Shown here: one piece after another, positions 5,479-7,697 of the stretch | Layout of the letters: the number at the start of each line of letters is the position of its first letter | Position numbering within the stretch: the stretch's first letter is position 1 | DNA from: a virus | Length of the DNA stretch: 25,367 nt | IMG/VR virus record: IMGVR_UViG_3300042387_000531 | Location: 1-25,367 of that record | Reading direction: 5' to 3' (one strand) | The notes under the pieces: model-generated | Told to the model about the DNA's origin: nothing | Seen by the model: only the letters and a program-made list of their open reading frames with translations | The model's database searches: none | Made by a program: the position numbers and the translations under genes

Positions 5479-5507
5479 ATTATACAGCAAAAAACAGGGG
5501 AACCAAA
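5479..5507 (-). promoter_or_regulatory. Putative promoter for helicase-methyltransferase unit
   Basis: TATAAT at 5484-5479 is a perfect -10 box. A weak -35 (TTTGGT at 17 nt, or TTGGTT at 16 nt spacing) falls in the loop of the preceding terminator hairpin. The predicted start near 5472 would leave a leader of only about 13 nt before the ATG at 5459. Confidence 0.55.
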
Positions 5508-5516
5508 GCCCCCCTG
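5489..5516 (-). terminator. Rho-independent terminator after ParB-like gene
   Basis: On the minus strand CAGGGG (5516-5511) pairs with CCCCTG (5500-5495) around a 10-nt loop, followed by a run of six T. It lies 20 nt beyond the stop of the ParB-like gene and closes the transcription unit that begins at the promoter at 7668-7697. Confidence 0.85.
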
Positions 5517-5535
5517 TGACAGTTATGAAAGTGGA

Positions 5536-6573
5536 TCAGAGTTTAACCAGTTCTTCCCCATCCATCCCACAAATCTGAGGAGCACGGTATCCAAATTCAA
5601 GATAATCGCGCAAAGAAGAATTGTGAGTGTTAAAAGTTTCAAGAGAAGAGATCACACGATATGCTTCTTGCTTGCGTGTTTCTACAACTTTGCGAAGATC
5701 ATTACCATCTTTTACGTTAGAGGTAGTCACATAGAAGTGGACAACAGTCTTGATTCCCTTAGAAGCAGCATCAAAGAAGATAGGCAAGAAATCGCGGAGG
5801 AAAACCTTTTGACTTGCCTCATAAAGGCGATGTACAACTTTTACATCATCTTCAAGTTTGAAATCACATTCACGAATTACAAAACCCTTGTCTAAAATAA
5901 GCATATCAATAACTTCATTTCGGGAAATAGAAGCAAGAAATGCGCTCTTTCCAGTGTTATTGAAGATTGCTTTTTTGAGATTGCTGCGGGAGAGTTTGGT
6001 CTCATTAGGAGCAAACTTTTCTACCCAAGCACTCACAAGTTCGGAAGTAACTTCTACACCCTCATTTTTCTTTCGCTCAATGAAAAGAATACCACGTGCT
6101 TTGTAGTCTTCGAAACAAGCAGCAGTTCCATCAGGTTGGGGTTGGTGAAGTAGACCAATCTCATCGATTACGTCACCAACACTATAATTTTCTTTGGGGC
6201 GGAAGATATCAACAGGCATCCAGGTATAACCATTTTCCTTATACCAACGGAGACGATGATTACCATTCAGCAACCAATCTTCACCTTCAAGCATACAGGC
6301 AGGTCGCTTACCAAACTTCCAACCCTTCGACATCGAACGGTCAACAGTTTCATAAGAAGTTTTGGTGATACCACGAAAGCGACCAACGTTTGCTTTACCA
6401 GGTTTTTGAACGGTATTTACATTAATAGCACGAGTTTCCACATATTCCAGAGTTTCGTATTGGTCAGGAATAGGATAGGAACGAATTTCTTCTACAAGAC
6501 GCAGAACAGCATCATCTTGCGGATGCGGTTGATAGTCAGAAGGAATATTGATGTTAAATTCAGTGAAAGTCAT
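5536..6573 (-). CDS. ParB-like nuclease/kinase-fold domain protein
   Basis: A 345-aa protein. Residues 100-124 carry WLLNGNHRLRWYKENGY followed by WMPVDIF, the ParB/Srx signature GxHR...A/W...G...PV, with a preceding region (49-56, RAINVNTV) that resembles the usual box-I strand. The rest (130-345) is helical and unassigned, with KLSRSNLKKAI as a possible HTH. ParB-fold proteins variously bind DNA, cleave it or hydrolyse CTP/ATP. Here the protein follows two methyltransferase halves, so a DNA-modification role is likely. The frame is open to a TTG at 6657, with ATGs at 6594 and 6573. I chose 6573 because a second protein-like frame occupies 6560-6670. A strong terminator follows. Confidence 0.8.
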   Translation of the reverse strand: MTFTEFNINIPSDYQPHPQDDAVLRLVEEIRSYPIPDQYETLEYVETRAINVNTVQKPGKANVGRFRGITKTSYETVDRSMSKGWKFGKRPACMLEGEDWLLNGNHRLRWYKENGYTWMPVDIFRPKENYSVGDVIDEIGLLHQPQPDGTAACFEDYKARGILFIERKKNEGVEVTSELVSAWVEKFAPNETKLSRSNLKKAIFNNTGKSAFLASISRNEVIDMLILDKGFVIRECDFKLEDDVKVVHRLYEASQKVFLRDFLPIFFDAASKGIKTVVHFYVTTSNVKDGNDLRKVVETRKQEAYRVISSLETFNTHNSSLRDYLEFGYRAPQICGMDGEELVKL

Positions 6574-6668
6574 AAGATTCGGCAATTTGTCCATTTCGGT
6601 TTTGGCAGTGTGCCTCAACCACCCGCTTAATATACGATGGATCTCCCTTGCCGTCAACCCCCGAATGA

Positions 6669-7070
6669 TTAGAAAAACTTTTCAATACCGATAAGTTCTC
6701 CAAATGAGTAATCATATTCCAGAGCATCGGCACAAACATAGTGTGGATGATCAACAGATACTCCAAGTCTAGTGCATAACTCTTTATGATTATCTTCCAT
6801 CATCTCAACAGCATAAAGCATATGATTCAAAACATATTCTTCACTATGATATTGACACAAACGATTCTTTAATCCTAGAAGAAAATTACCAGACCCTGCC
6901 GAGTTATCGATGAAAGTACTGCTCGGATCTTGAAGTAATTCCAAAGGAATTTCATCAATCATATTCTCGACAAGTTCTTGTGGGGTAAAAACTTCTTGTG
7001 TTTCTTTAATTCTTTCATCGGATCTTTCAATCGTAGATCCAACTTCTAGATTATGTTTATTCTTTGCCAT
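6669..7070 (-). CDS. Adenine methyltransferase, SAM-binding (motif I) half
   Basis: A 133-aa protein with the N-terminal half of a gamma-type N6-adenine methyltransferase. Motif X (EVFTPQELVENMID) is at 26-39, motif I (DNSAGSGNFL) at 55-64, motif II (YAVEMMEDN, acidic E89) near 86-94, and motif III (ADALEYD) at 114-120. It stops just where motif IV (NPPY) should follow. NPPY is instead at the start of the protein encoded immediately upstream, whose gene overlaps this one by 14 nt. The two chains probably assemble into one enzyme. The stop lies at a run of five T; shifting by one base reads on into a 37-residue protein-like tail, so the true C terminus may be longer. Alone it cannot catalyse transfer. 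Confidence 0.88.
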   Translation of the reverse strand: MAKNKHNLEVGSTIERSDERIKETQEVFTPQELVENMIDEIPLELLQDPSSTFIDNSAGSGNFLLGLKNRLCQYHSEEYVLNHMLYAVEMMEDNHKELCTRLGVSVDHPHYVCADALEYDYSFGELIGIEKFF

Positions 7071-7641
7071 TTTTCTCTTCTAGACACCTCACATACGTCG
7101 AGATTAGATCGTTCTTACCAAAATGATACCGTCCATTGCACTGATTTGCAACCTCTCTAAACACAGGCGCAAACTCAACGAGATTTTGTATTACATCTGG
7201 TGAACGAACTTTGAGAAAGTGATGTCCCTTTGCATAATGAGTAAAGTTCTCAGTTTTAACTCTACCACTGGGTCCACAACCATACTCACCCACAAACACA
7301 TCTGCTTCAAATCTTCTCTCATAAGAAAGAAACTCAAAGTCAGAATGCTCACGCATCATCGGAATTTCTCCGACTCCAACCCTAAATCTAGACGTATTTC
7401 TAACTTCCCAGTACTGTTTTACAGCACTAATCCCACCAGGAAATGTGGAAGGATCTAAATCTTCATCAACAACACAATGAAGGTGACCTTTAATTTTATT
7501 CAAAGAAGAAGGTTTGCGTACAGAAGTTGGTAATACAAACCTTATGTCATCAGTAATCTCAGCAGTCTTATTCAAGAACTTTATAGCAAGATTACCACCA
7601 ACACCATATGGAGGATTACCAATAGCTAAGCTGAATCTCAT
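7057..7641 (-). CDS. Adenine methyltransferase, catalytic NPPY half
   Basis: A 194-aa protein beginning MRFSLAIGNPPYGVGG, so the catalytic motif IV (NPPYG, residues 9-13) sits at the extreme N terminus. A region follows that probably holds the rest of the catalytic fold (FVLPTSVRKP near 35-45) and the target-recognition part (residues 60-190). No SAM-binding motif I is present; it is supplied by the next gene. The ATG at 7641 follows AGAAGGA and lies about 20 nt from the predicted start of a sigma-70-like promoter, making it the first gene of its transcript. The split point, between motifs III and IV, is clean. Confidence 0.88.
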   Translation of the reverse strand: MRFSLAIGNPPYGVGGNLAIKFLNKTAEITDDIRFVLPTSVRKPSSLNKIKGHLHCVVDEDLDPSTFPGGISAVKQYWEVRNTSRFRVGVGEIPMMREHSDFEFLSYERRFEADVFVGEYGCGPSGRVKTENFTHYAKGHHFLKVRSPDVIQNLVEFAPVFREVANQCNGRYHFGKNDLISTYVRCLEEKNGKE

Positions 7642-7667
7642 TCCTTCTCTTCAACGGCAACAAAGCG

Positions 7668-7697
7668 ATTCTACTGTGATTTGAGGGGTTCTGTCAA
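7668..7697 (-). promoter_or_regulatory. Sigma-70-like promoter of the split methyltransferase unit
   Basis: TTGACA (7697-7692), an 18-nt spacer and TAGAAT (7673-7668) on the minus strand, 11 of 12 consensus bases. It lies in the 61-nt gap after the last fibre gene and ends about 27 nt before the ATG at 7641. It separates late structural genes from early-type DNA-modification genes. Confidence 0.75.

What the first reader, a model, noticed from the sequence alone, without database searches (positions are those of the whole stretch)
5489..7697. Self-contained promoter - split methyltransferase - ParB-like - terminator cassette
A sigma-70-like promoter directly after the last fibre gene, two methyltransferase halves, a ParB-fold protein and a strong rho-independent terminator form a discrete unit. 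Such closed units are rare in this otherwise read-through genome. ParB-fold domains next to DNA methylases occur in phage base-modification loci, so the three proteins may build or read a modified base and protect phage DNA from host defence. This three-gene combination with a split enzyme is the best candidate here for an undescribed system.
Basis: partly seen in the sequence, partly recalled or inferred. Interest (0 to 1): 0.7.

Follow-up and report, generated by a model that had tools for sequence, protein, structure and literature searches.

The report
Split methyltransferase beside swappable ParB-fold gene
In an ocean cyanobacterial virus, a DNA-adenine methyltransferase appears to be encoded as two gene halves in reversed order, and next to it lies a one-gene slot in which related viruses exchange very different ParB-like (nucleotide-binding) genes, which suggests a fast-changing module used in conflict with hosts or rival viruses.

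Summary
The anatomy is real and conserved. The window is an IMG/VR fragment related to Prochlorococcus phage P-SSM2. P1 (window 7057-7641, -) holds motif IV (NPPY); P2 (6669-7070, -) holds motifs X and I. Together they look like one gamma-type adenine methyltransferase, cut between motifs III and IV, with the gene order reversed. Aeromonas phage Aeh1 has a fused chain in this same reversed order. The third gene has a ParB/sulfiredoxin fold. It is not a fixed partner. It occupies a slot with its own promoter and a terminator. Among 90 classified relatives the slot is empty in 20, holds a ParB-fold or ParB-like gene in 65 (six BLAST-unrelated clusters) and something else in 5. Methyltransferases up to 98% identical carry different cargo, with breakpoints at promoter and terminator. 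In other cyanophage genera such ParB genes often, but not always, lie beside unrelated adenine methyltransferases and nuclease-like genes. Best reading: a phage methylation module with an exchangeable ParB-fold NTPase, probably for conflict with host defences or rival DNA. No hypermodification genes were recognised beside it. Function is inferred, not shown.

The parts
7668..7697 (-). Promoter of the methyltransferase pair (TTGACA-18-TAGAAT)
   Evidence: at least 10 of 12 in 68 of 83 relatives against 3.6% background
7057..7641 (-). P1 (CAT): motif IV NPPY catalytic and probable target-recognition half, 194 aa, phrog_5172 (unknown function)
   Evidence: NPPY in 84 of 84
6669..7070 (-). P2 (SAM): AdoMet-binding half with motif X (EVFTP) and motif I (DNSAGSGNF), 133 aa, phrog_4376 (unknown function)
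   Evidence: site-specific adenine methyltransferase structures 7lni/8cxz, residues 27-84, E 8e-4
6629..6657 (-). Promoter of the cargo slot (TTGACG-17-TATATT), starting about 12 nt after the P2 stop
   Evidence: at least 10 of 12 in 51 of 61 filled slots, in front of several unrelated cargo families
6598..6620 (-). Inverted repeat / hairpin in the leader of the cargo gene (GGTTGAGGCA-CAC-TGCCAAAACC)
   Evidence: a similar hairpin predicted in most A1a-c leaders; possible autoregulatory site (inference)
5536..6573 (-). P3: ParB/sulfiredoxin-fold protein, probable 345-aa form (frame open from TTG 6657)
   Evidence: pNOB8-type ParB N-domain Z 9.7, rmsd 3.6, 159 residues; ParB-CDP Z 8.2, rmsd 2.4, 89 residues
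5494..5517 (-). Intrinsic terminator closing the slot
   Evidence: terminator after the cargo gene in 53 of 61 filled slots and in 19 of 20 empty ones (that script's rule missed the window's own copy, which one search finds)
5479..5484 (-). TATAAT -10-like box of the helicase gene, just after the terminator
4230..5471 (-). SF2 helicase (ResIII/DEAD), next transcription unit, borders the slot
   Evidence: syntenic in P-SSM2; not an obligatory partner
3415..4233 (-). Second DNA methyltransferase (PF01555 N6_N4_Mtase), overlaps the helicase gene by 4 nt

Best explanation
P1 and P2 are the catalytic/target-recognition and AdoMet-binding subunits of one gamma-type N6-adenine DNA methyltransferase. 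The chain is cut between motifs III and IV and the gene order is permuted (IV-TRD, then X-I-II-III). It marks phage DNA, most simply against restriction (inferred). Downstream lies a one-gene slot with its own promoter at the P2 stop codon and a terminator merged with the helicase promoter. Homologous recombination in these conserved borders swaps the gene between related phages (breakpoints shown, mechanism inferred). The usual cargo is a ParB/Srx-fold protein, probably a DNA-binding NTPase switch or NTP-regulated nuclease, that works with adenine methylation in conflict with host defences or rival DNA; fast turnover fits an arms race. Shown: gene halves, conservation, predicted fold of two cargo families, slot borders, swapping. 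Inferred: methylation activity, NTP use, purpose.
For: Complementary profile matches of P1 and P2. Fused chain Aeh1ORF084c in the order NPPY-TRD-FTP-motif I; KpV477 genes 030/029/028 in the same order, split. Overlap of 8-44 nt in 88 of 89. In S-SKS1, L178 and L179 the catalytic partner carries an extra N-terminal stretch without a canonical motif I while P2 is kept. ParB fold for window cargo and for BLAST-unrelated cargo A4. Cargo exchange between P1-P2 pairs 95-98% identical with sharp borders. Identical promoter block before unrelated cargoes A4 and L091. Recurrent ParB-methyltransferase neighbours in other genera: ACG-2014e, ACG-2014b, S-RIM2, L168, and MED4-213 at a distance.
Against: No biochemical evidence. 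P2 is below Pfam's gathering score (18.6 against 20.4) and P1 has no Pfam hit. The ParB gene is absent in 20 of 90 slots and is found without a methyltransferase in S-RIM8, S-CAM3, S-T4 and L169, so partnership is statistical at best. Cargo families A2 and L082 are called ParB-like on a weak motif or by eye. The swap picture rests mainly on metagenomic contigs.
Confidence: 0.55

Rival explanations
1. Neutral hotspot: the fibre-helicase border is a convenient place for recombination, and ParB-fold genes sit there for reasons unrelated to the methyltransferase.
For: Slot empty in 20 of 90; ParB relatives elsewhere without a methyltransferase; the helicase region often holds other genes and a methyltransferase in only 33 of 79 surveyed loci; homing-endonuclease-like ORFs in some slots.
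Against: 65 of the 70 occupied slots hold a gene of one of seven families assigned to the ParB group; the same families sit beside unrelated adenine methyltransferases in ACG-2014e, ACG-2014b, S-RIM2 and L168.
Confidence: 0.27
2. Phage-borne restriction-modification: the ParB-fold protein (NTP-regulated DNase, as reported for GmrS, Osa and a ParB-methylase fusion) cuts DNA lacking the phage's methyl mark, host or competitor, while the methyltransferase protects phage DNA.
For: Sister modules carry nuclease genes: ACG-2014e gp046 annotated restriction endonuclease, ACG-2014b gp053 PF20472 PD-(D/E)XK E 2.7e-11. ParB/Srx DNase activity is reviewed in PMC5512222 (passages seen).
Against: No nuclease gene was recognised beside the window slot; empty slots mean methylation without the putative nuclease is common; no catalytic test of P3.
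Confidence: 0.2
3. Base hypermodification locus: the three proteins build or read a modified base.
For: ParBc genes occur near cytosine-carboxymethylating enzymes in phages (PMC12783734, passages); DpdB is a ParB-like ATPase in dPreQ0 insertion (PMC12839542, passages).
Against: No base-synthesis, transglycosylase or ligase gene recognised in the immediate neighbourhood; the NPPY adenine methyltransferase pair persists with an empty slot.
Confidence: 0.07
4. Partition function: P3 is a ParB for plasmid-like maintenance.
For: ParB N-domain fold.
Against: Related phages are lytic T4-like (recalled); no partition context seen among the neighbours examined; very fast replacement.
Confidence: 0.02

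Closest known systems
Gamma-class N6-adenine methyltransferases (PF02384 type; C. difficile CamA, name of 7lni recalled)
   Same: Motifs X (FTP), I and NPPY; P2 aligns with residues 27-84 of 7lni/8cxz
   Different: Two polypeptides, cut between motifs III and IV, gene order reversed
Aeromonas phage Aeh1 ORF084c (hypothetical protein, note: similar to type III restriction)
   Same: Same permuted order, catalytic half first and AdoMet half last
   Different: One fused 415-aa chain; no ParB-type slot seen in the stretch shown
Natural permuted C5-methyltransferases (M.BssHII type; PMC5944983, passages)
   Same: Circular permutation of motif order
   Different: Cytosine-5 enzymes, permuted in the variable region, single chain
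ParB-CTPase-fold proteins fused to methyltransferases in phages (PMC12704722, abstract and passages)
   Same: ParB fold associated with DNA methyltransferase
   Different: Here separate, interchangeable genes in a promoter-terminator slot; no PF02195 hit
P1 DarB (methylase-helicase) with DdrB (ParB) antirestriction (PMC5512222, passages)
   Same: Adenine methylase, SF2 helicase and ParB domain together
   Different: Separate small proteins, separate transcription units; virion packaging not tested

Membership tests
Gamma-class N6-adenine DNA methyltransferase | Catalytic motif IV NPP(Y/F/W) | tested here: met
   84 of 84
Gamma-class N6-adenine DNA methyltransferase | AdoMet motifs X and I | tested here: met
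   EVFTP 91 of 91; motif I 91 of 91, 89 with the strict pattern
Gamma-class N6-adenine DNA methyltransferase | Single chain in order X-I-IV-TRD | tested here: not met
   Two genes in reversed order in 89 of 89 loci with upstream sequence. So: derived from / works like, not a regular member
Pfam N6_Mtase PF02384 | Gathering score 20.4 bits | tested here: not met
   P2 18.6 bits; P1 no hit
ParB/Srx-fold proteins | Fold with NGNHR-type signature at the nucleotide site | tested here: met
   N131, G132 and R135 invariant in 30 sequences
ParB/Srx-fold proteins | Pfam or NCBIfam ParB family match | tested here: not met
ParB/Srx-fold proteins | CTP/ATP binding or hydrolysis | not testable with these tools
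   needs biochemistry
ParABS partition | parA partner and parS sites | not tested
   no dedicated search was run
Type II restriction-modification | Cognate endonuclease gene beside the methyltransferase | tested here: inconclusive
   none recognised in the window neighbourhood; nuclease-like genes in sister modules
P1 DarB/DdrB antirestriction | Methylase-helicase fusion injected with the virion | tested here: not met
   no fusion in the window; the helicase is a separate unit; packaging not testable
Phage base-hypermodification locus | Base-synthesis or base-decoration enzymes alongside | tested here: inconclusive
   none recognised among the neighbours examined; the window is a fragment

The most novel reading that the evidence does not exclude
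Cyanophages carry a modular methylation-conflict system in which an adenine methyltransferase core (here a split, permuted heterodimer) works with any of several unrelated ParB/Srx-fold NTPases. These are exchanged as promoter-gene-terminator cassettes, so the NTPase is the specificity or effector part that the arms race keeps replacing, while a shared AdoMet subunit serves divergent catalytic partners.
Probability: 0.3. Interest if true: 0.82.

Novelty: new variant of a known kind. Interest (0 to 1): 0.62.

Why it matters
PHROGs lists P1 and P2 as unknown function, so this assigns a testable function to gene pairs present in P-SSM2, an isolated and annotated cyanophage. A natural heterodimeric, order-reversed adenine methyltransferase would be an unusual architecture for this enzyme class. 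A one-gene slot in which unrelated ParB-fold genes replace each other behind conserved borders gives a direct handle on what ParB-fold proteins do beside DNA methyltransferases, a question that two 2025 papers leave open (PMC12704722, PMC12783734; passages seen). It also offers a way to find phage counter-defence genes: collect what sits in such slots.

Tried and rejected
Same split in Escherichia rV5-like phages: rejected. magaca_60 is a normal-order single chain and magaca_59 is not P2.

Helicase as a fixed third component: not supported. It is a separate unit with its own promoter-like box, and only 33 of 79 surveyed helicase loci have a methyltransferase (HMM or motif) within 3.2 kb, 7 a ParB-like gene, 6 both.

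EcoRI-like nuclease in S-RIM2 gene 058: suggested by a recalled motif; phmmer against PDB sequences gave no match at E 1, so not claimed. L168 gene 2329-2973 looks nuclease-like by eye only; no Pfam or PADLOC hit.

Sequence-only detection of ParB: P3 had no Pfam ParB, NCBIfam or PADLOC hit; the PDB profile search gave only an unrelated E 0.42 row. The P1 profile gave no PDB match. Profile-profile comparison joined A1 with A5 (97%), but not with A2 (10%) or A4 (0.1%), and A3 only through a C-terminal stretch; A4 and A3 did not join. L082 lacks the motif used (0 of 3); that motif was chosen after seeing the families and occurs in 10 of 224 ORFs of 280-520 aa from the helicase loci.

P2 relatives in bacterial genomes: 32 pattern matches in genome contigs, none confirmed.

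Full report
What it comes from. The window is a complete 25,367-base IMG/VR record. Its gene order fibre - P1 - P2 - P3 - helicase - methyltransferase matches Prochlorococcus phage P-SSM2 genes 036-041. P1 and P2 are each 79-80% identical to P-SSM2, but P3 only 39%.

The methyltransferase. P1 begins at motif IV (IGNPPYG); P2 holds motif X (EVFTP) and motif I (DNSAGSGNF). P1 aligns to a methyltransferase profile from position 80 on (E 9e-9) and P2 to N-terminal parts of such profiles; the P2 profile matches solved adenine methyltransferases (7lni, 8cxz; residues 27-84, E 8e-4). The P1 profile found no PDB match. A regular gamma enzyme runs X-I-IV-TRD (recalled); here the second half is the first gene. 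Aeromonas phage Aeh1 ORF084c is one 415-aa chain in exactly this reversed order, and Klebsiella phage KpV477 has 030/029/028 in that order as separate genes. This is the strongest evidence that P1 and P2 are one enzyme. Among relatives the genes overlap by 8-44 nt in 88 of 89; the exception is 528 nt apart. Motifs are intact in all.

Evolution of the split. In S-SKS1 and contigs L178 and L179 the catalytic partner carries an extra N-terminal stretch without a canonical motif I, is only 33-37% identical to P1, yet lies beside a P2 that is 66-72% identical. In ACG-2014f, Bellamy and MA01, P2 lies near other NPPY methyltransferases. This suggests, but does not prove, a shared AdoMet subunit used by divergent catalytic partners.

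The third gene. P3 has no ParB family match, but AlphaFold2 on 30 sequences (mean pLDDT 80.6, pTM 0.54) gives a ParB fold: pNOB8-type ParB N-domain E 2.5e-4, Z 9.7, rmsd 3.6, 159 residues; CDP-bound ParB Z 8.2, rmsd 2.4, 89 residues. Near full-length matches occur in other cyanophages, two of them named ParB/Sulfiredoxin.

The slot. I classified 90 distinct relatives by what lies between P2 and the helicase: 47 carry the P3 family (A1), 18 carry six other families (A5 4, A3 4, A2 3, L082 3, A4 2, L091 2), 20 are empty, 5 hold other things. BLAST joins A5 to A1 and leaves the other five separate, so there are six clusters. Evidence that the other families are ParB-like varies: A4 by structure prediction (pLDDT 75.0; KorB E 9.6e-5, sulfiredoxin Z 8.6, rmsd 3.1, 89 residues); A5 by profile comparison (97%); L091 by a ParB profile (E 5.5e-5); A3 by motif and, probably, by a structure match to a 370-aa protein of ACG-2014e (accession not cross-checked); A2 by motif and a weak co-linear alignment; L082 by eye only.

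Borders and exchange. Filled slots have a promoter at the P2 stop (51 of 61) and a terminator before the helicase (53 of 61; 19 of 20 empty ones). The same promoter precedes unrelated cargo; A4 and L091 loci share an identical promoter block. Several 3' borders repeat the empty-site sequence CAGTT..CTGGCACA (by eye). P1-P2 pairs 96-98% identical carry different cargo: L060 (A5) and L059 (A1), L096 (A4) and L094 (L091), L038 (A2) and L037 (A3). Homology stops 32-46 nt after the P2 stop in these three pairs. In the first two it resumes 25-65 nt before the helicase start, in the third 20 nt after it. Nearest neighbours share the same label in 31 of 83, a figure lowered by my division of A1 into five subfamilies. 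Assembly chimeras are possible for single contigs, but some combinations recur in independent metagenomes (L091 and L094).

Other genera. Of nine ParB contexts outside the slot that I inspected, five show a DNA methyltransferase in the stretch: ACG-2014e (endonuclease - ParB - methyltransferase, overlapping), ACG-2014b (D12 methyltransferase - PD-(D/E)XK - ParB - helicase), S-RIM2 (ParB - D12 methyltransferase - helicase), L168 (helicase - unknown - ParB - methyltransferase) and MED4-213 (further away). Four show none: S-RIM8, S-CAM3, S-T4, L169. So the link recurs with unrelated enzymes but is not obligatory. The helicase itself is widespread without either gene.

Literature. Searches for ParB with methyltransferase and sulfiredoxin, for cyanophage with ParB and methyltransferase, for P-SSM2 with methyltransferase, for permuted adenine methyltransferases and for cyanophage cassettes listed no paper that, by title and abstract start, describes this pair or slot. 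In Sullivan 2010 (PMC3037559, passages) ParB does not occur and methylase occurs once, in a table. Most subscription papers are not held, so absence is not proof.

Verdict. A real and conserved architecture: a split, order-reversed adenine methyltransferase and an exchangeable ParB-fold cargo slot. The methylation step is likely, the conflict role is inferred, and hypermodification is unlikely.

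Noticed in passing
L002 and the P-SSM2-like group, upstream of P1: In one branch the -10 box ends 6 nt before the P1 ATG, implying a leaderless transcript; in the window branch the leader is 26 nt.
   Followed up: partly
window 6598-6620 and cargo leaders of A1 loci: Hairpin or inverted repeat between cargo promoter and start codon, with A1c variants that look compensatory (GGCA/TGCC to GGCGA/TCGCC); could be an operator for the ParB-fold protein. No covariation statistic was run.
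   Followed up: partly
L169 2986-3912: A4-type ParB gene directly after what looks like the major capsid gene (by eye), away from any methyltransferase seen; S-RIM8 has an L082-type ParB gene beside the major head protein gene.
   Followed up: no
L042 and L044, slot: Homing-endonuclease-like ORFs (GIY-YIG-like and HNH-like by eye) after the ParB gene in two slots; possible movers.
   Followed up: no
L144 and L150, slot: Cargo reduced to the C-terminal, winged-helix-like (by eye) part only, as if the ParB domain was lost.
   Followed up: no
L007 (Bellamy) 3181-5396 and L004 (ACG-2014f) 5001-8948: P2 beside an NPPY methyltransferase without canonical motif I and a PD-(D/E)XK-like protein (by eye; no PADLOC hit).
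   Followed up: partly
L008 (MA01) 1196-4420: Single long chain that reads as helicase plus NPPY methyltransferase, with P2 close by.
   Followed up: no
window 17742-18062: Three tRNA genes on the minus strand (Leu-taa, Met-cat, Ile-tat).
   Followed up: no
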